From contig NZ_JANXUQ010000098.1 in the NCBI RefSeq assembly GCF_025356155.1, positions 1 to 35,727 of the forward strand: a stretch of 35,727 nt of DNA. Direction: 5' to 3'. A model generated the notes under the pieces. That model was not told the DNA's origin. It was given only the letters and a program-made list of their open reading frames with translations, and did not search any database. The DNA comes from Rhodoferax sp. GTDB taxonomy: Bacteria > Pseudomonadota > Gammaproteobacteria > Burkholderiales > Burkholderiaceae_C. The translations under genes were made by a program, and so were the position numbers. Every line of letters starts with the position of its first letter. The first letter of the stretch is position 1. Shown here piece by piece: positions 3,216 to 32,332 of this stretch.

Positions 3216-3263
3216 GCCTCTAGCCCTCGCACAATATGCCTAAGTAGCTACCAAAACAATAGC
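3216..3263 (-). repeat. 48-bp repeat element, copy A (intergenic, upstream of lptA)
   Basis: On the minus strand this reads GCTATT, 31 nt, then GGGCTAGAGGC. It is one of seven ungapped copies in the window and lies in the divergent pap-lptA gap, about 90 nt before the lptA start. An A/T-rich run flanks its left box. It is the only copy that touches no coding sequence. A possible -10 box for lptA (TACAAT, 3313-3318) lies downstream of it. Confidence 0.85.
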
Positions 3264-3353
3264 ATTTTAAAAAGCGGTCTGCCGCAGTGGCTTACGGGCG
3301 CCCTATGCTCAGTACAATCGTTGAAGTTCCACCTCAGCAAGTTCCGTGCCTTT

Positions 3354-4004
3354 ATGAAAAAAACACCTTCATTCCTGCTGCTGTTGACCGTCTGTGTGGT
3401 GTTTACGTTGCCTGCCTGGGCGGAGAAGGCTGATCGGAACAAAACCATGTTCTTCGAGTCAGACAACCTGCGTCTTGACGACGTCAAGCAAATATCGACC
3501 TTCGCTGGCAACGTAGTCATGACCAAGGGAACCATTGTGGTCCGGGCTGCCAAAATTGATGTGCGTGAGGCTGCCGATGGTTACCAATCTGCCCTCATCA
3601 CCGGCACTTCTGAAAAACCAGCGTTCTTCCGGCAAAAGCGCGAGGCGGTGGACGAATACATCGAGGTGGAGAGTGAACAGATCGATTACGACGGCAGTGC
3701 CGATATCGTGAAGTTCACTGGCAAGGCCGTGCTGCGCCGACTGCGTGGCACCGTATTGGCCGATGAAATCACCGGGGCGGTCATCATTTATGAGAATCTG
3801 ACCGACAAATTCAGCGTGGACGGCAGCGCTGCCGCCAAAGTGGGCAGTAGCGCGCCAGCCCCCAGCGGCCGGGTGCGCGCCATGTTGACGCCCAAGCCCG
3901 AGTTTGCGGCTTCGGCGGCGGCCTCGTCCCCTGCTAAACCCGTAGCAAGCCAATCCAGCCCCAGCCTGCGCGCCACCACGACGTTGGGGAGCCCCCCGCA
4001 GTGA
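3354..4004 (+). CDS. lptA: LPS transport periplasmic protein LptA
   Basis: Periplasmic bridge protein that passes lipopolysaccharide from the inner-membrane LptBFGC complex to LptDE in the outer membrane. The 216-residue precursor opens with a clear signal peptide (MKKT, hydrophobic core, cleavage after A-W-A at residue 23). The OstA/LptA beta-jellyroll domain follows, with family-typical stretches such as NVVMTKGT and [16 protein letters not shown]. The last 50 or so residues are Ala/Pro/Ser-rich low complexity. Start 3354 is preferred over an in-frame upstream ATG (3198) because it begins the signal peptide and because the upstream part runs through repeat copy A; its Shine-Dalgarno is weak. 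The stop overlaps lptB by 4 nt. The usual upstream partners lptC and kdsC are not adjacent here. Confidence 0.93.
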
Positions 4005-4810
4005 CCCCAACGGCAGCAGTGAGCAACAGCAACAGCAGCAATAGCAGTAGCAGTGGGACGGATTCGGCCATCGGTCGGCTTGAAGTCAGCCAAATTCAGA
4101 AGTCGTACGGCAAGCGCCAGGTGGTCAAGGATGTGTCGCTGACCGTGCGCACCGGCGAGGTTGTGGGGCTCTTGGGCCCCAACGGTGCGGGCAAGACCAC
4201 GTCGTTTTATATCATCGTCGGCCTGGTACGCGCCAGCGCCGGCGATATCACGATCGACGGCCAGTCTATCGAGCACATGCCCATCCACCGCCGCGCGCGG
4301 CTGGGGCTGGGGTATTTGCCGCAAGAGGCCTCCATATTTCGCAAGCTCAATGTGGAAGACAACGTGCGTGCCGTGCTGGAGCTGCAGCATGACGATGCTG
4401 GCAAACCCCTGAGCCGTGCCGAGATTGAAGTGCGCCTGACCGCTTTGCTGCAAGACCTGCGGGTGGAGCATCTGCGCGAATCACCCGCGTTGGCGCTGTC
4501 GGGTGGCGAGCGCCGCCGCGTCGAGATTGCCCGTGCACTGGCCACGCGGCCGCGCTTCATTTTGCTGGACGAACCCTTCGCCGGTATCGACCCGATTGCG
4601 GTGATCGAAATCCAGCGCATCATCAATTTCCTGAAGGCCCGTGGCATCGGCGTGCTGATCACAGACCATAACGTCCGCGAGACGCTGGGTATTTGTGATC
4701 ACGCCTACATCATCAGCGACGGCCGCGTGCTCGCCCAGGGTACGCCCTCCGAGATCGTGGACAACGCCGACGTGCGCCGCGTATACCTCGGCGAACACTT
4801 CAAGATGTAG
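4001..4810 (+). CDS. lptB: LPS export ABC transporter ATP-binding protein LptB
   Basis: ATPase that powers extraction of lipopolysaccharide from the inner membrane with LptF and LptG (not in this window). The 269-residue protein has Walker [10 protein letters not shown] (59-67), the ABC signature LSGGE (166-170), Walker B FILLDE with catalytic Glu191, and the switch His in ITDHN (223). The GTG start lies inside the lptA stop (GTGA), so translation is probably coupled. A second GTG at 4019 is also in frame. The first 24 or so residues are an unusual Asn/Ser-rich extension encoded by a run of AGC/AAC/AGT triplets (about 4019-4055), before the conserved [11 protein letters not shown]. Confidence 0.95.
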
Positions 4811-4820
4811 CTGGATATGG

Positions 4821-4905
4821 CCCCCACGCTCCACCGCTACGCGGGTCGCTGCCCCCCGAGGGGGCCAATTTGCCTTGGGGCGGCCCGGCGGCAAATTGCC
4901 GCTCC
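4821..4905. repeat. GC-rich intergenic repeat with two hairpins (lptB-rpoN)
   Basis: Two stem-loops fill the lptB-rpoN gap: GCCCCC/GGGGGC (4851-4856 with 4860-4865, loop CGA) and CAATTTGCC/GGCAAATTG (4866-4874 with 4890-4898, 15-nt loop). The leading part (cccccacgctcc, then gcgggtcgctgcc and ccccgagggggc) matches from memory an intergenic repeat common in Comamonadaceae genomes. It may weaken or end lptB transcription. No T-tract follows. There is a single copy in this window. Confidence 0.6.
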
Positions 4906-4929
4906 CGCCGACTACACGTCTGCTTTGAT

Positions 4930-6558
4930 ATGAAACAAGGGCTGTCCCTTCGCGTCTCGCAGCACCTGGCCCTCACGCCCCAGTTGCAGCAGTCCATTCG
5001 CCTCCTGCAACTCTCCACGCTGGAACTCAGTCAGGAAGTGGAGCAGATGCTGGACGAAAACCCCTTCCTGGAAGTAACCCAAGACGAGGCCGTGCGCGAG
5101 GAATTCGGCTTGGCCCAGGCCGACACGCTGGTCAGCGCTGGTGAGCGCGAATCCGAGGCTGCTCCTGCTTCCATAGCAGACTATGCAGATTCTACGGGGG
5201 CTAGCAGCGCAAAAGACGAAGACGCTACGCCGCTGGGCGGTGGCGATGACGAGCCCAACTGGGACGGCGACGGCACGACCGAGATGGTGCCCGACGACGG
5301 CGAATGGGGCACCGACGCCAAGGCCAAAGCCAACAACCTGGGCGACGGCGAAGACACCGACGCCACCGAATTGGCCCGAACGCAGGAGTCGCTGCAATCG
5401 CACCTGCACCGCCAGGCCCTGAGCCTGCGGCTGAGCGAGACCGATGCCAGCGCGCTGCGCTTTTTGATCGAGTCGCTGAACGACGACGGCTACCTGGAAG
5501 ACCCGCTGGACAGCTTGGCCCGCGGCCTGGCGGGTGACGACGAAGAGCAGGTCGAAGACCTGGTGCACCACTTCACAGTCGCCATGGGTTTGCTGCACAG
5601 CCTGGAGCCCGCAGGCGTCGGCGCACGCGATCTGGGCGAATGCCTGCGCCTGCAACTGCGCGCCAAGCTGGACGACGCGCTGAGTCCACACCAATCCGAG
5701 CCCGAACCCGAGTCCGAGTACGCCACGCTGCTCACGCTGGCCCTGCGCATTTGCGGCCAGCCCATGGATCTGCTGGCGCGCCGTGATGTCAAAAACCTAG
5801 TACAACGCTGCGGCGGCACCGATGCGCTGACGCGCGAAGCCATCACGCTGATCGCGCGGCTGGAACCCAAGCCGGGCCGCCGTTTCGTCGACGTGGAACG
5901 CAACATTGTGGTACCTGACGTACTGGTCGTGGCCGTCGGCAAAATTCGCGCGGGCATCAACCCGCAGTTCCGCGTCATGCTGAACCCCGAGGTCATGCCC
6001 AAGTTGCGCGTGCACGACATTTATGCCAACGTGCTGCGCAACCACCGTGGTGGCGGCAAGGACAGCGCCAGTTATGCCGGCCTGCAGCAGCGCCTGCAAG
6101 AGGCCCGCTGGTTCATCAAGAACATCCAGCAGCGCTTTGACACCATATTGCGCGTCAGCACGGCCATCGTAGACCGGCAAAAGAGTTTTTTCACGCACGG
6201 CGAGCTGGCCATGCGTCCCCTTGTCTTGCGCGAGATTGCCGACGAACTGGGCCTGCACGAGTCCACCATCAGCCGCGTCACCACGGCCAAGTACATGGCC
6301 ACGCCGTTTGGTACTTTCGAGCTGAAATACTTCTTCGGCTCCGGCCTGGGCACCGAGTCCGGTGGCAACGCGTCCAGCACCGCGGTGCGGGCGCTGATCA
6401 AGCAATTCATCAGCGCCGAGAGCGACAAGAAACCCTTGAGCGACAACCAGATTTCCGAGATGCTGAAAGAGCAGGGCATCGAATGTGCCCGCCGCACCGT
6501 GGCCAAATACCGCGAGGGGCTGAAGATTGCCCCCGCTTCGCTGAGGAAAGCGTTGTAA
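4930..6558 (+). CDS. rpoN: RNA polymerase sigma-54 factor RpoN
   Basis: Sigma factor that directs RNA polymerase to -24/-12 promoters, where enhancer-binding ATPases trigger initiation. The 542-residue protein has all parts: Gln/Leu-rich region I (LTPQLQQSIRLLQLS), an acidic region II, a core-binding region, a helix-turn-helix (LREIADELGLHESTISRV) and the RpoN box ARRTVAKYRE (520-529). Start 4930 gives the usual MKQGLSLRVSQ N terminus. Codons for residues 78-93, in the acidic linker, are exactly repeat copy F (5161-5208), so this stretch appears to have been acquired from the repeat. The gene follows lptB as in many proteobacteria, but the usual downstream hpf/ptsN genes are replaced by a HEPN/MNT pair. 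Confidence 0.97.
   Translation: MKQGLSLRVSQHLALTPQLQQSIRLLQLSTLELSQEVEQMLDENPFLEVTQDEAVREEFGLAQADTLVSAGERESEAAPASIADYADSTGASSAKDEDATPLGGGDDEPNWDGDGTTEMVPDDGEWGTDAKAKANNLGDGEDTDATELARTQESLQSHLHRQALSLRLSETDASALRFLIESLNDDGYLEDPLDSLARGLAGDDEEQVEDLVHHFTVAMGLLHSLEPAGVGARDLGECLRLQLRAKLDDALSPHQSEPEPESEYATLLTLALRICGQPMDLLARRDVKNLVQRCGGTDALTREAITLIARLEPKPGRRFVDVERNIVVPDVLVVAVGKIRAGINPQFRVMLNPEVMPKLRVHDIYANVLRNHRGGGKDSASYAGLQQRLQEARWFIKNIQQRFDTILRVSTAIVDRQKSFFTHGELAMRPLVLREIADELGLHESTISRVTTAKYMATPFGTFELKYFFGSGLGTESGGNASSTAVRALIKQFISAESDKKPLSDNQISEMLKEQGIECARRTVAKYREGLKIAPASLRKAL
5161..5208 (+). repeat. 48-bp repeat element, copy F (inside rpoN)
   Basis: GCTCCT, 31 nt, then GGGCTAGCAGC: a diverged copy read in frame as APASIADYADSTGASS (RpoN residues 78-93). 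It uses the same reading frame as copies C and G. It lies in the variable acidic linker of sigma-54, where extra residues should be tolerated. The right box is almost perfect, the left box is worn, and the length is unchanged. Confidence 0.7.
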
Positions 6559-6576
6559 TGATGGATAGGCAAAACC

Positions 6577-6990
6577 ATGGCTGACTTTGTTCTGCACTTG
6601 AGCCCACTTTCCAGCGCCATAAACCGCCTGGACGAGGGCATCGTCCGCTACCAGTCTGACACGTCGGACACGCAGATTCGCGATGGACTGATCCAGCGCT
6701 TCGAGTTCACGTACGAGATCAGCCACAAGATGCTCAAACGCTACATGGAAATGGCTTCGGCTACACCCGAGCAATTCGACGGTATGCCGTTCCAGGACAT
6801 GATTCGTTCGGGCAACGAGCAGGGGCTATTGCTGAGTGACTGGCCACGCTGGCGAACATTCCGCGACATGCGCAGTAAAACCAGCCACACGTACGACGAA
6901 GCGAAGGCGCTTGAAGTGGTTGCGGAACTTCCGGCATTTCTGGAAGAAGCAAAATTCCTGCTAGTCCAATTGAAGGACAGGGCGGCGTGA
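6577..6990 (+). CDS. HEPN-domain protein of a HEPN/MNT toxin-antitoxin module (HI0074-like, HepT)
   Basis: Probable toxin of a type VII HEPN/MNT module. HepT-type HEPN proteins are RNases silenced by modification from the partner nucleotidyltransferase. The 137-residue helical protein matches the HI0074 'nucleotidyltransferase substrate-binding' family and carries the HEPN active-site motif R-x4-H-x-Y as R99, H104 and Y106 (RSKTSHTY), so the catalytic residues look intact. ATAGG sits 8 nt before the ATG. The gene begins 18 nt after rpoN and overlaps the next gene by 4 nt (GTGA). Whether it is an active RNase or only a binding partner cannot be read from sequence. Confidence 0.88.
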   Translation: MADFVLHLSPLSSAINRLDEGIVRYQSDTSDTQIRDGLIQRFEFTYEISHKMLKRYMEMASATPEQFDGMPFQDMIRSGNEQGLLLSDWPRWRTFRDMRSKTSHTYDEAKALEVVAELPAFLEEAKFLLVQLKDRAA

Positions 6991-7370
6991 CTGCGCCCGT
7001 TGCCAGTGCAACACCGGCTTTGGACGTCCAGCCCGAGCATCTAGCCGTCGTTCGGAATATCCTGCAAAAGCATGTACCAGGGTACGCGGTATGGGCCTTT
7101 GGCTCGCGTGCCAAACGGACTTCGAAGCCATTTTCTGACCTTGATCTGGTTGTTATCACCGAGCAGCCTTTGTCACTGGCCCTTTTTGCAGCATTGGGTG
7201 AGGAGTTTTCTCAGTCGAATCTGCCTTGGAGAGTGGATGTGGTGGATTGGGCGACGGCCAGCGACGTGTTTCGAACAATCATCGAGGGCAACAAAGTGAT
7301 GATTCAACCAGCAAAGACGCAGCAAAAAGCACCTGAACCCGATCGCGCGCCGAATAGGGAAAACCCATGA
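6987..7370 (+). CDS. MNT-domain nucleotidyltransferase, antitoxin partner (MntA/HI0073-like)
   Basis: Minimal nucleotidyltransferase of the DNA polymerase beta fold, expected to neutralise the adjacent HEPN protein by adding AMP or similar groups to it (known for MntA-HepT; inferred here). The signature GS-x10-D-x-D is complete: G39 S40, D51 and D53 in FGSRAKRTSKPFSDLDL. D84 in WRVDVVDW is the probable third metal ligand. The 127-residue protein starts with GTG inside the HEPN stop and ends inside the rlmL start (ATGA), so three genes in a row are coupled by 4-nt overlaps. By eye the sequence is less GC-rich than its neighbours, which suggests acquisition. Confidence 0.88.
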   Translation: MTAPVASATPALDVQPEHLAVVRNILQKHVPGYAVWAFGSRAKRTSKPFSDLDLVVITEQPLSLALFAALGEEFSQSNLPWRVDVVDWATASDVFRTIIEGNKVMIQPAKTQQKAPEPDRAPNRENP

Positions 7371-8671
7371 ACCAACTCCAAATTTTCCTCCCCTGCGCCG
7401 CCGGCGTAGAAGACCTGCTGGCCCACGAGGTGCACGACCTGACCGGCCTGATGGGTGAAGACCTGCTGACCCGCCGCGGTGGCGTCATGGCCAAAGCCTC
7501 GTGGCGCGACGCCATGCGCCTGAACCTGCACAGCCGCCTCGCGCAGCGCGTGTTGGTACAGCTGTCCTACACCGACTACCGTAGCGAACAGGATCTGTAT
7601 GCTGCCGCCAGCGAGGTGGCTTGGGAGGTCTGGTTCACGCCCAAACAGTCGATCAAGGTCGAGGTAACTGCGCAGCACAGCCCGCTGACGTCGTTGAACT
7701 TTGCCGGGCTCAAGATCAAGGACGCCGTCTGTGACCGCTTCCGCGACAAGGCCCACGGCGTGCGCCCCGATGTCAACACCCAGTGGCCCGATGTGCGCAT
7801 CTACGCCCACCTGACCACCGACACCTGCTCGCTGTACATCGACACGTCCGGTGAGCCGCTGTTCAAGCGCGGCTGGCGTGAAGACAAGGGCGAGGCGCCG
7901 CAGAAAGAAACCCTGGCCGCCGCCATGATCGCCGCCAGCGGCTGGGCCGATGGCGATGACGATCTGCTGCCGCTGTACGACCCCTGCTGCGGCAGCGGCA
8001 CCATCGCCATCGAGGCCGCGCAGATCGCCTGCAACATCGCGCCGGGCAGCCTGCGCCGTTTTGCGTTCGAGAAGTACATCCCGTTCCAGCAACACGTGTG
8101 GGACGGCATCAAGCAGGAAGCCGCCGCCGCCGTGGTCAAACCCGAGCCCGGCCAAAAGCCGTTGATCTACGGCAGCGACGTGGCGCACCGCATGGTCGAC
8201 TTTGCGCAGCGCAATGCCGAGCGCGCAGGTGTGGCCGACGTCATCGAATTCCGCGGTGGTGACGCGCTGCAACGCATGCCGCCCACCGACGGTCCCGGCG
8301 TGCTGCTGCTGAACCCGCCGTACGGGGACCGCATCGCGGTGGCCGGTGTCAGCGGTGCCGGTGCTAGGCGCTCCGGCGCACCCAATCGCGGGGACCGCGT
8401 TGATGCGCCACTGCCCGACTACGAAGCCCAGAGCGGCGCGCGGGAGCAGGCGGTGACCGAAGACGGCGGCGAATTCTTCAGCCAGCTCGCGACGCACTGG
8501 AAGAAAAACTTCAGCGGCTGGACCGGCTGGATTTTGACGCCCGACCTCAAGCTGCCCAGCAAGATGCGCCTCAAAGAATCCCGCCGCGTACCGATGTGGA
8601 ATGGCCCCATCGAATGCCGCATGTTCCGCTTTGACATGGTCAAGGGCACTGCCCGTAAAAATGGGGTCTGA
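7367..8671 (+). CDS. rlmL: 23S rRNA (guanine-N2) methyltransferase, RlmL-type
   Basis: SAM-dependent rRNA methyltransferase related to the N-terminal half of E. coli RlmKL, which makes m2G2445 in 23S rRNA. The 434-residue protein has an N-terminal THUMP/ferredoxin-like region, the SAM-binding motif DPCCGSGTIAIEAA (from residue 205) and the catalytic NPPYG (316-320). It lacks the RlmK domain fused on in enterobacteria. A Gly/Ala/Arg-rich insertion of about 45 residues follows NPPYGDRI. The start ATG overlaps the MNT gene stop, and the end overlaps the PIN gene by 11 nt. The exact target base is inferred from family membership only. Confidence 0.88.
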   Translation: MNQLQIFLPCAAGVEDLLAHEVHDLTGLMGEDLLTRRGGVMAKASWRDAMRLNLHSRLAQRVLVQLSYTDYRSEQDLYAAASEVAWEVWFTPKQSIKVEVTAQHSPLTSLNFAGLKIKDAVCDRFRDKAHGVRPDVNTQWPDVRIYAHLTTDTCSLYIDTSGEPLFKRGWREDKGEAPQKETLAAAMIAASGWADGDDDLLPLYDPCCGSGTIAIEAAQIACNIAPGSLRRFAFEKYIPFQQHVWDGIKQEAAAAVVKPEPGQKPLIYGSDVAHRMVDFAQRNAERAGVADVIEFRGGDALQRMPPTDGPGVLLLNPPYGDRIAVAGVSGAGARRSGAPNRGDRVDAPLPDYEAQSGAREQAVTEDGGEFFSQLATHWKKNFSGWTGWILTPDLKLPSKMRLKESRRVPMWNGPIECRMFRFDMVKGTARKNGV

Positions 8672-9110
8672 TTGCCGTTTGGTCATCCTGGACACCAACA
8701 TCGTCCTGGACACCTTTGTCTTCAACGACCCCGCGGCCAAGCCCTTGCTGCAAGCGCTGCAGTCCCGCTCCGTGCAGTGGATCGCCACCGCCCCCATGCG
8801 TGAGGAGTTGGAGCGCGTGCTGGCCTATCCCAAGATCGCCAAGCGTCTGGCTTTTTACCAATTGCAGGCTGCGGATGTGCTGCAGCACTTCGACACCTTG
8901 GTTCAGACAGTAGCGGTGGCGGCCAAGGCACCCATCGTCTGCAAAGACCCGGACGACCAGAAGTTCATAGACTTGGCGGTCGCGCACAAGGCCCTGGTGC
9001 TGAGCAAGGACAACGCTGTGCTCTGTATGAAGAAAAGGCTGCTAGCCCTCGGCGCACAAGCACAAGCCGCTATGGAATGTGTAGCGACAACCATGCCCGT
9101 CACGCTGTGA
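8661..9110 (+). CDS. PIN-domain protein, putative toxin component (COG1569-like)
   Basis: Likely metal-dependent RNase of the PIN family, the class labelled 'putative toxin-antitoxin system toxin component'. The 149-residue protein shows the acidic PIN residues: D11 in LDTNIVLD, E48/E49 in MREELERVL, D98/D99 and D104 in DPDDQKFIDLA, and D117 in LSKDNAV. No antitoxin gene sits beside it: upstream is rlmL, which it overlaps by 11 nt, and downstream is a convergent gene 4 nt away. The C-terminal residues, about 126-142, are encoded by repeat copy E read antisense, so the native C terminus seems to have been replaced. An upstream in-frame ATG (8601) lies inside rlmL and is less likely. Confidence 0.82.
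   Translation: MGSDCRLVILDTNIVLDTFVFNDPAAKPLLQALQSRSVQWIATAPMREELERVLAYPKIAKRLAFYQLQAADVLQHFDTLVQTVAVAAKAPIVCKDPDDQKFIDLAVAHKALVLSKDNAVLCMKKRLLALGAQAQAAMECVATTMPVTL
9038..9085 (-). repeat. 48-bp repeat element, copy E (3' end of PIN gene)
   Basis: On the minus strand: GCTACA, 31 nt, then GGGCTAGCAGC. It is read by the plus-strand PIN gene, so the protein sees the element backwards, as LLALGAQAQAAMECVA with flanking residues. The centre CATAGC and the right box match the other copies well. Confidence 0.75.
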
Positions 9111-9114
9111 ACCC

Positions 9115-17129: not shown

Positions 17130-17651
17130 TTAGGCTACTTGCAACAGCTCCGCCAAGCGTTGCAATGCGCGCTGCACGGTGGCTGCGCGCACTTTGACGC
17201 GGTCGCCGGCAAAGTGTTGCACCTCGGAGACTAGGCCTGCGGGCGTGGCCCAGCCCAGCCACACGGTGCCCACAGGTTTTGCATCACTGCCACCGCCGGG
17301 GCCAGCCACCCCCGTTACCGCCACCGCGACCTGGGCGGCGGAGTGCGTTAGCGCCCCTCGCACCATCGCGCGCACCACCTGCTCGCTCACAGCGCCGTGG
17401 CTGCTCATCAGCGCGGCGTCCACGCCCAGCATCTCGGACTTGGCGGCGTTGGAATAGGTCACAAAGCCGCGTTCAAACCAGTCGCTGGAACCGGCGATGT
17501 CGGTGCAGCAGGCCGCAATCAGCCCGCCGGTGCAGCTCTCGGCGGTGGCCAGTTTCCAGCCACGTATTTTTAACAAATAGGCCGCTAGCCCTCGTGCTAT
17601 ATCGATATCTCGCTCTGAATTTAATAGCAATCCAGAAGAGGGCGGGTTCAT
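17130..17651 (-). CDS. pncC: Nicotinamide-nucleotide amidohydrolase PncC (CinA C-terminal domain family)
   Basis: Cytoplasmic enzyme that deamidates nicotinamide mononucleotide to nicotinate mononucleotide in pyridine nucleotide salvage. The 173-residue protein has the family signatures LATAESCTGGLIA, FVTYSNAAK, LMSSHGAVSEQV and AVTGVAGPGGG. Start 17651 overlaps the pgpA stop by 4 nt (ATGA), so the two are coupled. Residues 8-24, including SERDIDIARGLAA, are encoded by repeat copy D; the native N-terminal helix has been extended or replaced by repeat sequence while the catalytic part is intact. It ends just before inverted repeat copy 2. Confidence 0.93.
   Translation of the reverse strand: MNPPSSGLLLNSERDIDIARGLAAYLLKIRGWKLATAESCTGGLIAACCTDIAGSSDWFERGFVTYSNAAKSEMLGVDAALMSSHGAVSEQVVRAMVRGALTHSAAQVAVAVTGVAGPGGGSDAKPVGTVWLGWATPAGLVSEVQHFAGDRVKVRAATVQRALQRLAELLQVA
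17581..17628 (-). repeat. 48-bp repeat element, copy D (5' end of pncC)
   Basis: On the minus strand: GCTATT, 31 nt, then GGGCTAGCGGC, one of the clearest copies. It is read as residues 8-24 of PncC, in a frame one base off from that used in copies C, F and G. The flanking A/T-rich bases after the right box (ctatttg) also resemble those of copies B and C. Confidence 0.85.
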
Positions 17652-19392: not shown

Positions 19393-20447
19393 GGGGAAGA
19401 ACGGTTGATGGGGTTGAAGTGGTCGAAGGAAGTGAATTGGTTGGCCAACACAGACGCGCCCTGCGCGTCCACCAGGCGCAGGCCGGGTGCGCTGTCGATC
19501 TGGCCTATGCGCGTGACCGGTGTGGCGCTGGTCTGGCTGGCGGCCTGCACGGCGGCGCGCTGCGCGGGTGGTGCGCAGAACACCAGCTCGTAGTCGTCCC
19601 CCCCGGCCAGCACGCAACGCAGGGCCTCTTGCGCTGAAATCCTGCTTTCTACCGAAGGGCTTGAGTCAAATTGGCCGCTAGCCCTCGTGAAATATGCGTT
19701 AGATGCTAGCAAATGAATAGCAACTGAGGTATCCAAGGTGGCGCCAACCCCCGAGCGCTGCAGGATATGGCCCAGGTCGCCCAGCAGGCCGTCGCTGATG
19801 TCGGCTGCTGCGCTGGCCACGCCGCGCAGGGCCAGGCCTAGTGCCACGCGCGGCGTGGGTTGTTCCAGGCGCTGGCGGGCGGCAGCCAGAACCGCATGTG
19901 GCAACTGGATGTGGCCTAGCAGCGCCTGCAGCGCCAGGCACGCATCGCCCAGCGTGCCGCTAACGTAGATGTCGTCACCCGCTCGGGCGCCCCCACGCAG
20001 CAAGGCCTGTGTGGCGGGTCGCTTTTGCAGCAAGGCCTGGCCCGCAGGCACTTCGCCAAACACGGTGATGCAGATATTCAGTGGCCCCTGCGTAGTGTCC
20101 CCGCCGATCAGCTCGCAGCCATGTTCGTCCGCCAAGGCAAGCAAGCCCTGCGAGAAGGGTTCCAGCCACGCTGCATCGGCCATGGGCAAGGCCAGCGCCA
20201 GCGTAAGAGCCACGGGCCGCGCGCCGCAGGCGGCCAAATCGCTGAGGTTGACGGCCAGGGCCTTGTGGCCGAGGCGGCGCGGGTCGGTGTCGGGAAAGAA
20301 GTGCCGACCGGCGACCAGCATGTCGGTGGAAATGGCCATCTGCATGCCGGGGGCTGGCTGCAGCAGCGCGCAGTCGTCACCCACGCCCAGTACGGCCCGC
20401 GGCGTGGGGCGGGTGAAGAAGCGCTGGATCAGCTCGAACTCGCCCAT
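19389..20447 (-). CDS. thiL: Thiamine-monophosphate kinase
   Basis: Phosphorylates thiamine monophosphate to thiamine pyrophosphate with ATP, the last step of thiamine pyrophosphate synthesis. The 352-residue protein has the family motifs GEFELIQRFF, GVGDDCALL, STDMLVAGRHF, the metal/nucleotide stretch ELIGGDTTQGP, AADISDGLLGDL and LAGGDDYELVF. Between the last two, residues 243-258 are exactly repeat copy C, followed by about 15 further non-conserved residues (QFDSSPSVESRISAQ), making this copy longer than most ThiL proteins. It begins 14 nt after the upstream membrane-protein gene and overlaps the HNH gene at its end. Confidence 0.94.
   Translation of the reverse strand: MGEFELIQRFFTRPTPRAVLGVGDDCALLQPAPGMQMAISTDMLVAGRHFFPDTDPRRLGHKALAVNLSDLAACGARPVALTLALALPMADAAWLEPFSQGLLALADEHGCELIGGDTTQGPLNICITVFGEVPAGQALLQKRPATQALLRGGARAGDDIYVSGTLGDACLALQALLGHIQLPHAVLAAARQRLEQPTPRVALGLALRGVASAAADISDGLLGDLGHILQRSGVGATLDTSVAIHLLASNAYFTRASGQFDSSPSVESRISAQEALRCVLAGGDDYELVFCAPPAQRAAVQAASQTSATPVTRIGQIDSAPGLRLVDAQGASVLANQFTSFDHFNPINRSSP
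19674..19721 (-). repeat. 48-bp repeat element, copy C (inside thiL)
   Basis: On the minus strand: GCTATT, 31 nt, then GGGCTAGCGGC, close to consensus. It is read in frame with thiL as AIHLLASNAYFTRASG, the same frame as copies F and G. It sits in a loop between the conserved SDGLLGDL and GGDDYEL motifs. Two GCTAGC hexamers inside it could pair with each other. Confidence 0.85.
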
Positions 20448-25171: not shown

Positions 25172-25180
25172 TGCGTCGGC

Positions 25181-26905: not shown

Positions 26906-27010
26906 GGTGACACCCTTGTCAGGTGGATTCAGCATTCAGACGTGTACGACCAGACTCTAGTCTTATTTTGTAAGTTTGTGTTGCGGAATTTTCTGCACCA
27001 AAAGGGCGTT

Positions 27011-27043: not shown

Positions 27044-27064
27044 GTTGGGGAGCAGTGTGGATTG

Positions 27065-27649
27065 CTACTTGGTACCCAACATCGCGTCTTTGAGCATGTA
27101 ATCCGCAGGCGAACTACCGAGCCATATGGACATCATGGCTTTGTAAAAGTCGGGCGATGTGAAAGGCTCTCCTTGCACCGTGCCTTTCGCGGTCACGACC
27201 ATACCGGTGCCAGGAATCCAGTCGATTGTGATGACATCGCCCGGTATCAAAACCTTGTTGACGGTGAAGATTTCCCCCATGCGTATCAGGCCGGGAACCA
27301 GTTTGGAAACTTCGGACTTCGGAACATTGTCTTCTACGCCCCGGGTTAGCAGTTTTCCAAAGGGACCTGCTTCCACTTCGCGCAGCATGGTCATGGACAG
27401 GCGCTTGGGGCCGGGTGCTGCCACCAACTCCTCCAGCGAGCTGACTTTTTTGCTGGTGTAGAGATCGCCTACATAGACTTTGAACGGGCCTTTGTAACGC
27501 GTGCCAGCACCGTTGAGCTGTAAAGTTGCGCCGCCCACGACGGCAGTTTCCTGCACTTTGACGCCGTGGATGACGAGGGGCGCTGCCCAAGCGCTGACAC
27601 CCACCAGCAGAGCCGCAGCAGTTATGAAAAGTTGTTGAGTCAGGCGCAT
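27065..27649 (-). CDS. Chalcone isomerase-like exported protein (PF16036-type)
   Basis: 194-residue protein with a signal peptide (MRLTQQLFITAAALLVGVSA, cleaved after A-W-A) and the bacterial chalcone_isomerase-like domain (YKGPFKVYVGDLYTSKK, then FTVNKVLIPGDVITIDWIPG and FYKAMMSIWLG). The plant enzyme cyclises chalcones; the bacterial periplasmic relatives have no assigned substrate, so no reaction is claimed. ATG 27649 has GGAG 5 nt upstream; an in-frame ATG at 27664 is less likely. A perfect palindrome sits 21 nt before the start, pointing to control by a dimeric repressor, and a strong terminator follows the stop. Confidence 0.85.
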   Translation of the reverse strand: MRLTQQLFITAAALLVGVSAWAAPLVIHGVKVQETAVVGGATLQLNGAGTRYKGPFKVYVGDLYTSKKVSSLEELVAAPGPKRLSMTMLREVEAGPFGKLLTRGVEDNVPKSEVSKLVPGLIRMGEIFTVNKVLIPGDVITIDWIPGTGMVVTAKGTVQGEPFTSPDFYKAMMSIWLGSSPADYMLKDAMLGTK

Positions 27650-27666
27650 GGAATCTCCATTCAAAA

Positions 27667-27686
27667 AAAGGAACGATCGTTCTTTT
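27667..27686. promoter_or_regulatory. Palindromic operator upstream of the chalcone-isomerase-like gene
   Basis: Perfect 12-bp palindrome GAACGATCGTTC (27671-27682) within a 20-bp near-palindrome (27667-27686, one mismatched pair). Sites of this size and symmetry are typical of TetR-family repressors. No tetR-type gene is in the window, so the regulator would be encoded elsewhere. Confidence 0.65.
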
Positions 27687-27742
27687 AATGCGCCTATTCT
27701 GCGCCGTTTACAACTGGTAACACCCTAGGGTTTTCGCGGAGA

Positions 27743-27770
27743 TTGCTACCAACAACGGGCCAAATATAGA
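27743..27770 (+). promoter_or_regulatory. Candidate sigma-70 promoter of the trp operon
   Basis: TTGCTA (27743-27748) and TATAGA (27765-27770) with a 16-nt spacer, each 4 of 6 to consensus. Transcription would begin near 27777, about 20 nt before the leader peptide start. This is the best-placed candidate ahead of the leader, but the boxes are weak. Confidence 0.4.
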
Positions 27771-27799
27771 CACACCGGCTGGTTTGATACACTGAGGGC

Positions 27800-27904
27800 A
27801 TGTTCGTTCATCATATTTTTTTGACGGGTTGTAGCGACCGGGGAGCCTGGCCCTGGCGTACGCTGACCGTTATGCCTGAACCCGTGACTGCCGCACGCGC
27901 CTGA
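27800..27904 (+). CDS. trpL: trp operon leader peptide with two Trp codons
   Basis: 34-codon open frame starting MFVHHIFLTG and containing W17-P-W19, ending at TGA 27902-27904. GAGGG lies 4 nt before the ATG. Trp is the rarest residue and two codons within three positions, 200 nt ahead of trpE, is what an attenuation leader looks like. The RNA just after the Trp codons (27861-27869) can pair perfectly with 27913-27921. A ribosome stalled at the Trp codons would cover the first arm. The peptide itself probably has no function beyond ribosome positioning. Confidence 0.68.
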   Translation: MFVHHIFLTGCSDRGAWPWRTLTVMPEPVTAARA

Positions 27905-27921
27905 TTGTCAGGCGGTCAGCG
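27861..27921 (+). promoter_or_regulatory. Candidate trp attenuator hairpins
   Basis: CGCTGACCG (27861-27869) pairs with CGGTCAGCG (27913-27921), 9 bp perfect, starting 4 nt after the second leader Trp codon. A short perfect hairpin GCCTGA-TTG-TCAGGC (27899-27913) overlaps the leader stop codon and shares base 27913 with the long stem. No T-tract follows, so the terminating structure, if any, is not a textbook one. Confidence 0.5.
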
Positions 27922-28031
27922 GGCGTTGTCACCCGGTTCTGCGCGAACAAGCGGCACGGACCTCCACTCCGACATCTTGCGCGCACCAGTCTCTCCCCGG
28001 GCCTGCCTTGGGGAATCGGTTTGAATAGAAC

Positions 28032-28057
28032 GCGCGCCCAGCTTTGCACGGGCGCGC
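28032..28057 (+). promoter_or_regulatory. Strong GC hairpin just ahead of trpE
   Basis: GCGCGCCC (28032-28039) and GGGCGCGC (28050-28057) form an 8-bp perfect stem with a 10-nt loop, about 45 nt before the trpE start. There is no following T-tract. It may be the end structure of the leader RNA or affect trpE translation. Confidence 0.5.
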
Positions 28058-28102
28058 AGGTGGCAGCCGGTGCCGCCTTGCAAGATGAGAGGACCGCAAT
28101 CC

Positions 28103-29638
28103 GTGATTTCCGAATCTGAATTCCAAACCCTGGCCGCCCAGGGGTTCAACCGCATCCCGCTGATGGCCCAGGCTTTTGCCGACCTAGAGACGCCGTTATC
28201 CCTGTACCTGAAGCTGGCCCACATGCCAGGTGAGGCCGCGGTGCTGGACCCCAACAGTGGCAAGTACAGTTTTCTGCTGGAGTCAGTGGTCAGTGGTGAT
28301 CGCTTGGGGCGCTACAGCTTCATCGGCCTGCCAGCGCGCACGCTGGTGCGTGCTTGCGGCTTTGGCGCCAACGCCGTGACCGAGGTGGTGACGGATGGCG
28401 TGGTGGTAGAGGCATCCACCGCCAACCCACTGGATTTCATTGCCAGCTACCAAACACGCTTCAAGGTAGCGCTGCGCCCCGGGCTGCCCCGCTTTTGCGG
28501 CGGGCTGGCGGGCTACTTTGGCTACGATGCCGTGCGCTATATCGAGAAGAAGCTGGAAGCCACCTGCCCCCCCGACGAATTGGGTTGCCCCGACATCCTG
28601 CTGTTGCAATGTGAAGAGCTGGCCGTCATCGACAACCTGTCGGGCAAGCTGCACCTGATCGTGTACGCCGATCCTGGCCAGCCCAATGCCTACGCGCTTG
28701 GCGGCCAGCGCCTGCGTGAACTTAAAGAGCGCCTGGCCCAGGCCGTGCGCATTCCGGCCGTCAAACCCACGCAGAGCCACCCGGCCCAGCGCGACTTTGC
28801 CAAGGCCGACTACATCGCCGCAGTGGAGCGGGCCAAGGAGCTGATCGCCGGGGGCGACTTCATGCAGGTCCAGGTAGGACAGCGCATTAAGAAACGCTAC
28901 ACCGAGTCACCGCTGAGTTTGTACCGGGCGCTGCGTTCGCTGAACCCCAGCCCGTACATGTACTACTACCACTTTGGCGACTTCCATGTGGTGGGGGCGT
29001 CGCCAGAGATTCTGGTGCGCCAAGAGTTGGTTACCGCTGGGGATGCAGTTTCAACAAAAGTAACCATTCGACCCCTAGCGGGCACGCGCCCCCGTGGCGC
29101 CACGCCCGAGCTGGACAAGGTCGCCGAAGAAGAACTGGTCAGCGACCCTAAGGAGCGTGCCGAACACGTGATGCTGATCGATCTGGCGCGCAACGACATC
29201 GGCCGCATCGCCCAGATCGGCAGCGTCAAGGTGTCGGACGCGTTCTGTGTGGAACGCTACAGCCACGTCATGCACATCGTCAGCAATGTCGAAGGCACGC
29301 TCTTACCCGGCATGACCAGCATGGACGTGCTCAAGGCCACCTTCCCCGCGGGCACGTTGACCGGCGCGCCCAAGGTGCACGCCATGGAGCTGATCGACCA
29401 GCTGGAACCCACCAAACGCGGCCTGTACGGCGGTGCCTGTGGCTACCTGAGCTACGCCGGTGATATGGACGTGGCCATTGCCATCCGCACCGGCATCATC
29501 AAGAACCAGACCCTGTATGTGCAGGCGGCAGCCGGAGTGGTGGCCGACAGCCTGCCGGAGCTGGAATGGAAAGAAACAGAGGCCAAGGCGCGCGCGTTAC
29601 TGCGGGCAGCAGAACTGGTCGAAGAGGGATTGGAATAG
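28103..29638 (+). CDS. trpE: Anthranilate synthase component I
   Basis: Converts chorismate and ammonia to anthranilate with TrpG, the first step of tryptophan synthesis. The 511-residue protein shows the chorismate-utilising fold: SPEILVR, TIRPLAGTRPRG, LVSDPKERAEHVMLIDLARND, YSHVMHIVS and FPAGTLTGAPKVHAMELIDQLE. The N terminus keeps the feedback-site region (LEX-type sequence near SGKYSFLLESV). A GTG start at 28103 gives ISESEFQTLAAQGFNRIPL, the usual beginning, with GAGAGGA about 8 nt upstream; an ATG at 28085 in frame is the alternative. It is followed after 4 nt by a chorismate mutase gene. Confidence 0.96.
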   Translation: MISESEFQTLAAQGFNRIPLMAQAFADLETPLSLYLKLAHMPGEAAVLDPNSGKYSFLLESVVSGDRLGRYSFIGLPARTLVRACGFGANAVTEVVTDGVVVEASTANPLDFIASYQTRFKVALRPGLPRFCGGLAGYFGYDAVRYIEKKLEATCPPDELGCPDILLLQCEELAVIDNLSGKLHLIVYADPGQPNAYALGGQRLRELKERLAQAVRIPAVKPTQSHPAQRDFAKADYIAAVERAKELIAGGDFMQVQVGQRIKKRYTESPLSLYRALRSLNPSPYMYYYHFGDFHVVGASPEILVRQELVTAGDAVSTKVTIRPLAGTRPRGATPELDKVAEEELVSDPKERAEHVMLIDLARNDIGRIAQIGSVKVSDAFCVERYSHVMHIVSNVEGTLLPGMTSMDVLKATFPAGTLTGAPKVHAMELIDQLEPTKRGLYGGACGYLSYAGDMDVAIAIRTGIIKNQTLYVQAAAGVVADSLPELEWKETEAKARALLRAAELVEEGLE

Positions 29639-29642
29639 AACT

Positions 29643-29969
29643 ATGAGCAAGCAAGCAATTGAGCAGGTGCAGCACTGCACCACCATGACCGATGTGCGCC
29701 GCTGTGTCGACGCTCTGGACGACCTGTTGGTGCCACTGCTGGTGCAGCGCAGCGGCTACATGACCCAGGCCGCCCGCATCAAGCAGGAAGAAAACCAGGT
29801 GCGGGATGAAGCACGCATCCAAACGATAGCCGACCGGGTGCGCGCACAGGCGTTGGCTGAAGGGGGTGAGCCCGCCGTCATCGAGGCCATTTATCGCAGC
29901 ATGATGGAAGTCTGCATTTCTTTTGAGCACCGCGAGTTTGCGCGGCTGCGGCAAGGAGAAACGGCATGA
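29643..29969 (+). CDS. Chorismate mutase (AroQ class)
   Basis: 108-residue all-helical protein of the AroQ type, expected to turn chorismate into prephenate for Phe and Tyr. The ordered features are an N-terminal helix with [20 protein letters not shown], then [18 protein letters not shown] with the Arg/Lys/Asp pattern of the active site, and a last helix ending FEHREFAR. Isochorismate-pyruvate lyase (PchB) has the same fold and cannot be fully excluded. It lies 4 nt after trpE and overlaps trpG by 4 nt (ATGA), so both enzymes competing for chorismate are made from one message. Confidence 0.88.
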
Positions 29970-30544
29970 AGTTGCTGATGATCGACAACTACGACAGTTT
30001 TACCTACAACATCGTCCAGTACTTTGGTGAACTGGGCGCCGAAGTAGAGGTCTTCCGCAACGACGAGATCACGGTGGAAGGCATTGCCGAGCGTCGCCCG
30101 GACCGCCTGGTGGTTTCGCCCGGCCCCTGTTCCCCGGCCGAAGCGGGTATATCGGTGGCGGCTATCCAGCACTTTATGGGCAAGCTGCCCATTTTGGGCG
30201 TGTGTCTGGGCCACCAGAGCATTGGTGCGGCGCTGGGTGGCACCATCATCCGGGCGCAGCAACTCATGCACGGCAAAACCTCGGTGATCACGACGACACA
30301 AGAAGGTGTATTCGCCGGCCTGCCCAGACAGTTCACGGTCAACCGCTACCACTCGCTGGCGATCGATCGCCCCTCTTGCCCAAAGGAACTGGCCGTGACC
30401 GCCTGGACCGACGACGGTGAAATCATGGGCGTGCGCCACGCCGGCCTGGACCGCGCGGTGCGTGTGGAGGGCGTGCAGTTCCACCCCGAGTCCATACTCA
30501 CCGAGCATGGACATGCGATGCTGAAGAATTTTCTTTTACTATGA
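29966..30544 (+). CDS. trpG: Anthranilate synthase component II (glutamine amidotransferase)
   Basis: Supplies ammonia from glutamine to TrpE. The 192-residue class I amidotransferase has [27 protein letters not shown], the nucleophile Cys in [12 protein letters not shown] and the His-Glu pair in [17 protein letters not shown] lies 8 nt before the ATG. The last codon and TGA stop fall inside repeat copy B (30538-30585), which probably trimmed or replaced the original last few residues without touching the active site. Confidence 0.96.
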
Positions 30545-30585
30545 AATTCATAGCTGCTAACGCAATGCTGACAAGGGCTAGAGGC
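30538..30585 (+). repeat. 48-bp repeat element, copy B (trpG stop / ltaE leader)
   Basis: ACTATG, 31 nt, then GGGCTAGAGGC. The copy supplies the trpG stop codon (TGA, 30542-30544) and fills the gap to ltaE, ending 4 nt before its ATG. AGAGG inside the right box (30580-30584) is the only plausible ribosome binding site for ltaE, 5 nt from the start. Confidence 0.85.
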
Positions 30586-30589
30586 CAAT

Positions 30590-31657
30590 ATGACTAATGA
30601 ACACCAGCCGAACGTGGTCGATCTGCGCAGCGACACGGTCACCCAGCCAACACCCGCCATGCGCGCGGCGATGATGGCCGCGCCTCTGGGCGATGACGTG
30701 TTTGCCGACGACCCCAGCGTCAACGCGCTGCAGGAAAAAATCGCCGCGCTGCTGGGTTTTGAGGCAGCGCTGTTCATGCCCACCGGCACACAAAGCAACC
30801 TGTGCGCCATCATGGCCCACTGCCAGCGCGGCGACGAATACATCGTCGGCCAGCTGGCCCACACCTATCGCTGGGAAGGCGGCGGCGCAGCCGTGCTGGG
30901 CAGCGTGCAGCCGCAGCCGATCGCCCATCAGCCAGACGGCACGCTGGCCTTGGCCGACATCGAAGCCGCTATCAAACCCGACGACGCCCACTTCGCCCGC
31001 AGCCGCCTGCTGACGCTGGAGAACACCATTGGCGGCAAGCTGCTGCCGTTTGACTATGTGCAGGCGGCGACCGCGTTGGCGAAAGAGCGCGGTTTGAACC
31101 GCCATCTGGACGGCGCGCGCTTGTTCAATGCAGCGACGGCGCAGGCGGCCAAGACGGGCGGCGACGTGTACCTGGAAGCCAGGCGCATCGCCCAGTGTTT
31201 TGACAGCGTCTCCGTGTGTTTCAGCAAGGGCCTGGGCGCACCGGTTGGCTCGGCGCTATGCGGCAGCCGCGAGCTGATCGCCCGCGCCCACCGCGTGCGC
31301 AAGATGGCTGGCGGTGGCATGCGCCAGGCGGGTGTGCTGGCTGCAGCGGCATCTTATGCGCTGGACCACCATGTGCTGCGGCTGGCGGACGACCACGCGC
31401 TGGCGCAGCGCATGGCCATCGGGCTGGCAGGCATAGACGGCCTGGCCGTGGAGGCACCGCAATCCAACATCGTGTTTGTCGATCTGGTAGGTGCCGCGCG
31501 CAGCCAGTCTGCCGCGTTGTTGGCATCCCTGGCAAAACAGGGCATACGCGCCACCGGCCTCTACCGTCTGCGCTTTGTGGCTCACTTGGATGTGGACGCC
31601 GAGGGTGTGGACCGCGCCGTGGCGGCCATACGCCAGTTTTTTGCGTCGACCCGCTAA
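30590..31657 (+). CDS. ltaE: Low-specificity L-threonine aldolase
   Basis: PLP enzyme that cleaves threonine or allo-threonine to glycine and acetaldehyde. The 355-residue protein has VDLRSDTVTQPTPAMRAAM, GDDVFADDPSVNALQ, the PTGTQSNLCA phosphate-binding region, HLDGARLFNA with the PLP Asp, and the Schiff-base Lys in SVCFSKGLGAPVGS. It interrupts the usual trpG-trpD order and is followed after 15 nt by an amino-acid exporter gene. Ribosome binding seems to come from repeat copy B. It is not needed for tryptophan synthesis; a link to threonine/glycine balance is inference. Confidence 0.94.
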   Translation: MTNEHQPNVVDLRSDTVTQPTPAMRAAMMAAPLGDDVFADDPSVNALQEKIAALLGFEAALFMPTGTQSNLCAIMAHCQRGDEYIVGQLAHTYRWEGGGAAVLGSVQPQPIAHQPDGTLALADIEAAIKPDDAHFARSRLLTLENTIGGKLLPFDYVQAATALAKERGLNRHLDGARLFNAATAQAAKTGGDVYLEARRIAQCFDSVSVCFSKGLGAPVGSALCGSRELIARAHRVRKMAGGGMRQAGVLAAAASYALDHHVLRLADDHALAQRMAIGLAGIDGLAVEAPQSNIVFVDLVGAARSQSAALLASLAKQGIRATGLYRLRFVAHLDVDAEGVDRAVAAIRQFFASTR

Positions 31658-31672
31658 GCAAGGAATCCAGAA

Positions 31673-32332
31673 ATGCCAATCGACCAACTGCTGTTGTTTG
31701 TAGCCGCTGGCTTGTTGCTGAACCTGACACCCGGGCCAGACGTGTTGTACATCGTGTCCAACGCCCTGCGCGGTGGCGCGAGGGTCGGCATGGTGGCGGC
31801 GCTGGGCATTACGGCTGGCTGCTTTGTCCACATCTTTGCCGCAGCCGTGGGGGTGAGTGCGCTGATGGCGGCGTCCGCCACCGCTTTCACCATCCTCAAG
31901 TGGCTGGGCGCGGCCTACCTGGTCTACGTGGGCGTGCAACTGCTGTTCTCCAAGGGCGTAAACGCTATTAAATTGGGAGCGCCTAACGCAGATTCCGCGA
32001 AGGCTACAGGCGGAAACGGCTATGACGCTATTTTCTTGCGCGGCTTCTGGACGAATGCTTTGAACCCCAAGGTGGCGCTGTTCTTTCTGGCCTTCTTGCC
32101 GCAGTTCATCGCGCCTACGGTAGAGCACAAACCCATGGCGTTTTTGCTGCTGGGTTTGCTGTTTAACTTTAATGGGCTGTGGGTAAACATCGGCTGGGCG
32201 CTGGCTGCAGCCTGGTTGGCCAACCGCGCATCGCTAGTGCACAAAAGCATGCATTGGTTGGACCGTTTTGCCGGCGCGATGTTCGTAGGATTCGGAATCA
32301 AACTGGCGCTCACACAGACGCCCAACGCATAA
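31673..32332 (+). CDS. LysE/RhtB-family amino-acid exporter
   Basis: 219-residue inner-membrane exporter with about six hydrophobic segments and the family motif [21 protein letters not shown]. Members export threonine, homoserine, lysine or similar compounds; the substrate here is not determined. AGGA precedes the ATG by 8 nt. Residues 98-113, in the cytoplasmic loop before [13 protein letters not shown], are encoded by repeat copy G and are hydrophilic and Ala/Gly-rich. Its position after ltaE suggests it might deal with threonine or a related amino acid (inference). Confidence 0.92.
31964..32011 (+). repeat. 48-bp repeat element, copy G (inside the exporter gene)
   Basis: GCTATT, 31 nt, then AGGCTACAGGC, with CTAACGCA in the centre as in copies B and C. 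It is read as [16 protein letters not shown] in a loop of the exporter, the same frame as copies C and F. The right box has two substitutions, making it a moderately diverged copy. Confidence 0.75.

What the first reader, a model, noticed from the sequence alone, without database searches (positions are those of the whole stretch)
3216..32011. Seven ungapped copies of one 48-bp element, most of them inside genes
Seven sites share a left box (GCTATT or variant), exactly 31 nt, and a right box (GGGCTAGCGGC or variant): 3216-3263(-), 5161-5208(+), 9038-9085(-), 17581-17628(-), 19674-19721(-), 30538-30585(+), 31964-32011(+). The middle shares TAGC-N2-CTAACGC. No copy has an insertion or deletion, though several have diverged in base sequence. 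Five lie in coding sequence of unrelated genes, giving 16-17 extra residues in linkers, loops or protein ends. Being a multiple of three explains tolerance, but the fixed length in non-coding copies hints at a unit that moves or is copied whole. The behaviour resembles Rickettsia palindromic elements, yet the sequence and host group differ, and I know no name for it.
Basis: partly seen in the sequence, partly recalled or inferred. Interest (0 to 1): 0.88.

Follow-up and report, generated by a model that had tools for sequence, protein, structure and literature searches.

The report
Family-wide DNA motif with lineage dialects
The seven copies belong to a roughly 50-65 base DNA motif repeated hundreds of times in a Rhodoferax genome; related bacteria keep it at the same places but spell part of it differently, and it can come or go by point changes alone, so it looks more like a recognition signal than a jumping element.

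Summary
Confirmed: the seven 48-bp copies are real (leave-one-out 33-55 bits; best other window site 8.2). They belong to a family of about 700 copies per genome (59 strong copies in 436 kb), extending about 15 bp past the right box. It occurs in 41 of 133 sampled genera of its family; elsewhere in the order only single weak matches. "Inserted unit" is not supported as a general account. All seven copies lie at orthologous places in Rhodoferax sp. AJA081-3. Lineages use dialects of the right half (CGAGGGCTAG, CGGGGGCTAG, GGCGC, AAGCGCTAG, TTGGGCT) beside a constant left dyad GCTAY-N7-RTAGC. Lineages lacking the motif keep homologous but eroded codons (rpoN third-codon agreement 0.28 versus 0.71). 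In rlmL, and probably trpD, it came or went without a length change. No clear pairing covariation; spacing is more even than chance in two of four genomes. Best reading: a long double-stranded recognition motif for an unidentified protein, evolving like DNA-uptake sequences (USS/DUS); an uptake role is inferred. Against: ComEC presence does not track it; intergenic gaps holding copies are longer, and one site fits an empty site, so some copies may have begun as insertions.

The parts
3216..3263 (-). copy 1, intergenic, upstream of an lptA-like gene (LptD_N domain)
   Evidence: 50.2 bits leave-one-out; Pfam; orthologue in G208, L135:18680
5161..5208 (+). copy 2, inside rpoN (sigma-54), between activator-interacting and core-binding domains
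   Evidence: 35.2 bits; Pfam; motif segment present in 17 of 17 carriers aligned, eroded in 20 of 20 non-carriers aligned (two carriers, G220 and G204, score low, 15.0 and 25.5 bits)
9038..9085 (-). copy 3, inside a PIN-domain gene, 3' part, antisense
   Evidence: 33.0 bits; Pfam; orthologue L135:13597
17581..17628 (-). copy 4, intergenic between two minus-strand genes by my gene caller
   Evidence: 42.5 bits; orthologue L135:5050
19674..19721 (-). copy 5, inside thiL (thiamine-monophosphate kinase), sense strand
   Evidence: 54.7 bits; orthologue L135:3354; protein alignment
30538..30585 (+). copy 6, 3' end of a class-I glutamine amidotransferase gene; its bases supply the TGA stop
   Evidence: 35.1 bits; orthologue L134:11170
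31964..32011 (+). copy 7, inside a LysE-family translocator gene, sense strand
   Evidence: 44.6 bits; orthologue L134:9750; 16 residues aligned without gap in 40 of 40 homologues sampled from the best 120
8105..8152 (+). not a copy: rlmL-like segment whose homologue is a copy in G012, G215 and G008; shows the motif-free state

Best explanation
A long (48 bp core, about 64 bp with the tail) double-stranded DNA recognition motif, interspersed at about 0.13-0.17 copies per kb in six of seven carrier genomes sampled (0.46 in the seventh), read by an unidentified sequence-specific DNA-binding protein. Shown: the left part is a constant dyad GCTAY-N7-RTAGC; the right part changes by lineage (dialects); copies stay at orthologous places while their bases drift with the lineage; at rlmL the motif came or went without length change; it is eroded where the genome lacks the system. 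Inferred: the pattern is that of DNA-uptake sequences (USS/DUS), so the most likely role is marking self DNA for preferential uptake and recombination. Biased uptake would spread and homogenise the motif; loss or change of the receptor would erode it or shift the dialect. Role probability about 0.4; motif rather than mobile unit (as the general account) about 0.75.
For: Presence in the genus: 26 of 61 genomes have 84 or more R2 matches (scoring cap 92), 32 have 0-3, 3 lie between. Flank mappings from carriers (source copies of 28 bits or more): to other carriers present 493, partial 12, absent 18; to non-carriers absent 247 of 247; to G008 present 16, absent 15 (pairs not independent). 28 of 34 distinct non-carrier places are within 21 bp of the expected length. 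rpoN: third-codon agreement with the motif 0.71 in 17 carriers, 0.28 in 20 non-carriers; GC3 0.42 and 0.81. Some non-carriers nest among carriers in the RpoN tree. Length-neutral change: rlmL, probably trpD. Dialects and lineage-wise change at orthologous sites. Non-coding copies lie a median 20 bp from stop codons and avoid divergent gaps. Even spacing in G000 and G006. The 3 of 60 stretches without copies are a prophage, a low-GC stretch and a low-GC flagellar cluster.
Against: ComEC (PF03772) was found in 18 of 18 genomes then called non-carriers and 15 of 18 carriers; carrier G186 (99% complete, 92 matches at the cap) shows none. The motif is much longer and sparser than USS/DUS (9-12 bp, about 1 per kb; passages), with a relaxed consensus. 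Intergenic gaps with a copy are about 65-90 bp longer than gaps without; a copy cannot fit a short gap, so this is ambiguous, but it also fits insertion. One intergenic site fits an empty site in 4 of 5 genomes. ThiL and LysE relatives outside the genus are 11 and about 8 residues shorter. Copies lean slightly towards the orientation of the neighbouring gene (77 of 129 towards 5' ends, p 0.034; 110 of 195 towards 3' ends, p 0.085). No protein that reads the motif was identified. Spacing is not significantly even in G208 or G044.
Confidence: 0.6

Rival explanations
1. The same motif is a binding site for a chromosome-organising protein (nucleoid, segregation or domain function), kept by selection at hundreds of places, with specificity drifting between lineages.
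For: Dyad architecture; even spacing in two of four genomes; counts per 20 kb with variance/mean 0.46 (G000), 0.88 (G208), 0.62 (G006); persistence in G186 without a detected ComEC; relaxed consensus.
Against: No significant replication polarity (p 0.06-1.0 in six genomes); absence from 32 of 61 congeners is odd for a core function; no candidate protein tested; G044 carries 460 per Mb with close neighbours.
Confidence: 0.3
2. A small non-autonomous mobile element (Rickettsia-palindromic-element or MITE type) that inserted in ancestors and has since been inherited.
For: Fixed 48 bp length; intergenic gaps longer when a copy is present; one intergenic site with 63-72 bp less in 4 of 5 non-carriers; longer ThiL and LysE than relatives outside the genus.
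Against: rlmL copy without a gap against 27 genomes; dialect change at conserved places; erosion confined to non-carriers; at the sites compared between G006, G219 and G001 (flanks 97-98% identical at two sites) the only length change is a 44-bp partial deletion.
Confidence: 0.15
3. REP/REPIN sequences spread by a RAYT (Y1 HUH transposase) that coevolves with its dialect.
For: A 230-233 aa Y1_Tnp gene lies beside a glutamate-synthase-like gene in four of six neighbourhoods fetched; a copy lies 4-5 bp after its stop in G208 (30.1 bits) and, weakly, in G006 (18.2) and G210 (18.0), not in G003.
Against: Y1_Tnp is found in 17 of 18 genomes then called non-carriers and 16 of 18 carriers (Y1 subfamilies not separated); no clear hairpin covariation; 99 of 272 copies lie inside genes; length-neutral change.
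Confidence: 0.1
4. An RNA element or terminator acting in the transcript.
For: GCTAT/ATAGC can pair; copies cluster after stop codons; a slight same-strand lean.
Against: No clear covariation; 85 of 195 copies face the neighbouring 3' end in opposite orientation; copies inside coding sequence on either strand; no Rfam match at gathering score in the window.
Confidence: 0.05

Closest known systems
Uptake signal sequence (USS) of Pasteurellaceae
   Same: Arises by substitution, not insertion (Redfield 2006, PMC1626085, section 7 read); core plus AT-rich flanks, subclade-specific consensus, long stability, no significant orientation bias (passages). Here: dialects, long persistence, AT-rich tail, length-neutral change at rlmL.
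   Different: [quoted passage not shown] here 48-64 bp, about 0.15 per kb, relaxed consensus. Uptake preference shown there, untested here.
DNA uptake sequence (DUS) dialects of Neisseriaceae
   Same: Lineage-specific dialects that follow the core tree, intragenic copies, copies at terminators, no abundant repeat in five genomes of the family (Frye 2013, PMC3630211, passages).
   Different: 10-12 bp, thousands of copies, ComP receptor known; no receptor known here.
REPIN/RAYT systems
   Same: Many copies per genome; a Y1_Tnp gene at one place in several Rhodoferax genomes (Park 2021, PMC8049555, abstract and passages).
   Different: REPINs are extragenic hairpin doublets duplicated by RAYTs; here no clear covariation, many intragenic copies, no link with Y1 presence.
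Rickettsia palindromic elements (recalled, no paper read)
   Same: In-frame copies within unrelated genes.
   Different: Recalled as longer insertions; here the motif varies without length change at the coding sites tested within the genus.
HIP1 of cyanobacteria and small dispersed repeats (recalled, no paper read)
   Same: Genome-wide iterated motif also inside genes.
   Different: HIP1 is recalled as an 8-bp palindrome, without this architecture or dialect shift.

Membership tests
USS/DUS-type DNA uptake sequence | Highly repeated interspersed motif in coding and non-coding DNA | tested here: met
   272 copies of 25 bits or more in samples of seven genomes: 138 intergenic, 35 at gene ends, 99 inside genes
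USS/DUS-type DNA uptake sequence | Arises by point substitution in pre-existing sequence | tested here: inconclusive
   Fits at rlmL, probably trpD; one intergenic site, longer gaps and ThiL/LysE relatives leave insertion possible elsewhere
USS/DUS-type DNA uptake sequence | Clade-specific dialects | tested here: met
USS/DUS-type DNA uptake sequence | No strand polarity along the chromosome | tested here: met
   leading versus lagging p 0.06-1.0 in six genomes
USS/DUS-type DNA uptake sequence | Carrier has the DNA-uptake channel ComEC | tested here: inconclusive
   15 of 18 carriers; two misses (G011, G180) are 88% complete, the third, G186, is 99% complete
USS/DUS-type DNA uptake sequence | Motif DNA is preferentially taken up | not testable with these tools
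   needs a transformation assay
Rickettsia palindromic element / small mobile insertion | Orthologues without the element show a clean empty site | tested here: not met
   not met at rlmL, nor within the genus at rpoN and thiL for most genomes; one intergenic site compatible in 4 of 5 genomes
Rickettsia palindromic element / small mobile insertion | Copies at new places in close relatives | tested here: not met
   7 of 7 window copies shared with G208, which has no others in the 48 kb fetched there; only a partial deletion seen between G006, G219 and G001. Small sample.
REP/REPIN | Hairpin kept by compensatory change | tested here: not met
   no clear covariation in three genomes with 59-67 copies; a weak 4-14 signal in G143 (z 2.3, 14 copies)
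REP/REPIN | Abundance depends on cognate RAYT | tested here: inconclusive
   Y1_Tnp in 33 of 36 genomes irrespective of motif, but Y1 subfamilies were not separated

The most novel reading that the evidence does not exclude
Comamonadaceae-type bacteria carry an unnamed self-DNA recognition system: a long two-part motif (constant dyad plus dialect-specific half) read by an unknown receptor protein, which writes itself into genomes by driving point substitutions, conserved enzyme genes included, and changes dialect at hundreds of fixed places when the receptor changes specificity. It would be a third and much longer class beside USS and DUS, lost repeatedly within one genus.
Probability: 0.35. 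Interest if true: 0.9.

Novelty: new variant of a known kind. Interest (0 to 1): 0.8.

Why it matters
A 50-65 bp motif kept at orthologous places, hundreds per genome, while its spelling shifts by lineage is hard to explain by ordinary transposition or ordinary regulation. With carriers and non-carriers side by side in one genus, it offers natural experiments (loss, erosion, length-neutral change, dialect shift) on how genome-wide motifs arise and how a DNA-binding protein and hundreds of sites change together. If it is an uptake signal, it extends biased uptake to a large environmental family. It also affects annotation: the motif sets residues in rpoN, thiL, a LysE-family gene and others for reasons unrelated to protein function.

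Tried and rejected
RNA or ssDNA hairpin: rejected as main account. One search shows no clear covariation in G000, G208 or G006; G143 has a weak 4-14 signal, and the pooled set shows 23-39 and 25-39 (z about 5), which I read as dialect difference. Replication polarity: not significant. RAYT and ComEC as controlling factor: presence does not track the motif; only these two families were tested, so the trans factor is unknown. The copy beside the RAYT gene was not scored against chance, and two of its three instances are weak. Of six RAYT neighbourhoods fetched, G000's shows another Y1 gene without a copy and G183's gave no RAYT ORF in my listing. Literature: ten searches; no listing described this motif, but listings are capped, were read by title and abstract start only, and the library lacks most subscription papers.

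Corrections to my own steps. The third-codon script lost register and is discarded; one search replaces it. In some searches I counted G207 as a non-carrier because Rhodoferax-dialect matrices score its sites low; model R2 gives it 84 matches. Its 17 mappings were dropped from the non-carrier count; the tree and the family tallies still carry the old label (with G207 moved: non-carriers Y1_Tnp 17 of 17, ComEC 17 of 17; carriers 16 of 19 each). G183, called a non-carrier, has 20 R2 matches; contamination (4%) is possible. G008 (91 matches) was kept out of both groups in the mapping counts. Some rows of the automatic table are misassigned neighbours (rpoN row of G208; PIN rows of G012 and G215); I do not use them. 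Viral contigs: 22 stretches carry a left-half pattern, not followed up.
Full report
Observation. Leave-one-out scores are 33.0-54.7 bits; the best other window place scores 8.2 and the best of 20 random Markov sequences 12.6. The exact middle TAGC-N2-CTAACGC is in 2 of 7 copies. Four copies lie inside genes (rpoN, PIN-domain gene, thiL, LysE family), one overlaps a gene end and supplies its stop, two are intergenic by my gene caller.

Size of the family. Model R1 from the seven copies matched at all 150 places scored in the own genome, out of 1472 first-look candidates. In 20 stretches of 20 kb plus the window (436 kb) I find 59 copies of 25 bits or more (64 at the final threshold), 135-147 per Mb or about 700 per 5.1 Mb genome; the stretches came from contigs of at least 28 kb, nearly all known from earlier hits, so a slight bias is possible. 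The conserved part runs past the right box, with ATTT at positions 51-54 and CT..AA near 57-61. The genus is most likely Rhodoferax: 11 of 23 named pattern hits are Rhodoferax, 2 Polaromonas, 1 Giesbergeria, 9 carry no genus name. With R1, 45 of 150 genomes and 41 of 133 genera of the family match, some only once or twice. With the multi-dialect model R2, 8 of 200 genomes of the order match; five of them are family members (six family genomes appear in the listing) and the three others have one weak match each, E 7.5e-5 to 3.7e-4.

Dialects. Separate matrices for seven genomes share the left dyad GCTAY-N7-RTAGC and the distance to the right box, while the right half differs: CGAGGGCTAg (G000), CGGGGGCTAg (G208), GgGCGCcag (G006), and in other genera AAGCgCTAg (G143), ttGGGCTgg (G124), aaGCgcTaG (G142), aaGCGC (G044). 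In several dialects the middle carries the reverse complement of the right box (GCGCTT..AAGCGC), as expected if a dimeric protein reads two half-sites; that is inference. Within genomes the pairable columns do not clearly covary, which argues against a folded strand.

Orthology. G208 (contig length 5,173,062, the length listed for Rhodoferax sp. AJA081-3) is largely collinear with the window; it has a copy at each of the seven places and none elsewhere in the 48 kb fetched there. At orthologous sites the base at position 39 mostly follows the lineage: in the G006 clade it is C in 6 of 7 genomes at rpoN, 6 of 7 at the PIN gene, 6 of 7 at 17581 and 3 of 5 at thiL, the exceptions being G204 at all four and G001 at thiL. 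Outside that clade, by my count of the same table without the misassigned rows and with G208 rpoN taken, it is G in 20 of 26; the six C are in G210, G215 and G008.

Loss and erosion. In the RpoN tree of 38 genomes the absence label needs 5 changes (at least 4 forced by starred branches; G207 mislabelled there); G007 groups with carrier G012 (support 87/69) and G183 with carrier G215 (93/81), inside a well supported clade (99/98). In rpoN the 48 bases align without a gap in 17 of 17 carriers and 15 of 20 non-carriers (gaps of 1-9 codons in five); carriers agree with the motif at 0.71 of third codon positions, non-carriers at 0.28, with GC3 0.42 and 0.81. In thiL, 11 of 17 non-carriers keep the 67-residue segment usual in carriers without the motif, three have 75 and one 65; G214 and G217 have 56-57, like three distant ThiL structures. 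Flank mappings from carriers to non-carriers give 247 of 247 absent; they collapse to 34 distinct places, of which 28 are within 21 bp of the expected length, four are 40 bp or more shorter, one is 36 bp shorter and one 28 bp longer.

Change without length change. In rlmL, G012, G215 and G008 carry the motif (29.9-35.4 bits) where 27 other genomes, 14 of them carriers, have homologous codons with no gap in the 48 columns, at -47.7 to 20.0 bits; the G006 clade has intermediate scores of 0.5-20 (G003 gave no match). The differences include synonymous ones. Gain is the simpler reading on the tree, but loss in several lineages is not excluded. At the end of a trpD-like gene (Glycos_transf_3 domain; the name trpD is recalled) G215 has a copy of 34.5 bits where G208 has aligned sequence 3 bp longer at -12.1 bits; only G208 and the window could be mapped, the window poorly (+61 bp), so the direction is open. 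This parallels the gap test by which Redfield and colleagues showed that USSs are not insertions (PMC1626085, section read).

Results against. Intergenic gaps holding a copy are longer than gaps without (convergent medians 103.5, 103 and 82 versus 21, 11 and 13; tandem 130, 95 and 104 versus 51, 28 and 34). One intergenic copy of G180 is matched by 63-72 bp less in 4 of 5 non-carriers. Relatives of ThiL and LysE outside the genus are 11 and about 8 residues shorter. So copies may have begun as insertions at some places. At one site of G006, G001 and G219 (flanks 97-98% identical) G219 has a 44-bp deletion that starts inside the copy, and the copy differs far more between G006 and G001 than its flanks.

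Placement. Of 272 copies in seven genomes, 138 are intergenic, 35 overlap a gene end and 99 lie inside genes; 83 of the 99 use one of two frames. Of 162 non-coding copies with both neighbours, 99 are in tandem, 48 in convergent and 15 in divergent gaps, against 559, 96 and 191 background gaps; the median distance from a facing stop codon is 20 bp. Orientation leans slightly with the neighbouring gene (110 of 195 at 3' ends, p 0.085; 77 of 129 at 5' ends, p 0.034). Pairs closer than 1 kb are fewer than under uniform placement in G000 (0, expected 6.0, P 0.0015) and G006 (3, expected 7.9, P 0.02), weakly so in G208 (5, expected 8.9, P 0.08), not in G044 (10, expected 11.1). Three of 60 Rhodoferax stretches have no copy: a prophage, a 48.9% GC stretch with few Pfam hits, and a flagellar/chemotaxis cluster; the last two have the lowest GC of their sets of 20. 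Three empty stretches is about what Poisson predicts (3.5), so only their content is suggestive.

Mechanism. The facts fit a double-stranded protein recognition motif under genome-wide maintenance. By behaviour the closest analogues are USS and DUS (passages and one section). Membership is not claimed: uptake is untested, ComEC does not track the motif and carrier G186 shows none, and length and density differ. A chromosome-organising protein is the main rival. RAYT presence also fails to track the motif, although a copy, strong in one case and weak in two, sits beside the RAYT gene in three of the four neighbourhoods where that gene was seen.

Noticed in passing
L294:1852-2605, L295:1983-2731, L297:1521-2272: A Y1_Tnp (RAYT-like) gene of 231-233 aa lies beside a glutamate-synthase-like gene; a motif copy starts 4-5 bp after its stop in G208 (30.1 bits), G006 (18.2) and G210 (18.0), not in G003; the protein matches Pfam more weakly in G006.
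   Followed up: partly
L139 (G219), homologue of L137:15435-15482: A 44-bp deletion begins inside the copy and leaves its first 11 bp; between G006 and G001 this copy differs much more than its flanks.
   Followed up: yes
L210:18223-18279 and L210:18388-18444 (G044): Identical 57-bp neighbouring copies 165 bp apart, suggesting local tandem amplification in this dense (460 per Mb) genome.
   Followed up: no
G183:C74:12014-12068: A strong R2 match under 1 kb from an IS200-type Y1 gene, in a genome with only 20 matches; contamination or a mobile carrier.
   Followed up: no
NZ_MG869627.1 5352-5400: A weak similarity (80% over about 50 bp, E 0.04) to copy 5 on a 7-kb Polaromonas plasmid.
   Followed up: no
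L300-L321: 22 stretches of viral contigs carry a left-half pattern of the motif; whether these are prophages with host flanks was not checked.
   Followed up: no
window 35121-35420: Three tRNA genes in a row.
   Followed up: no
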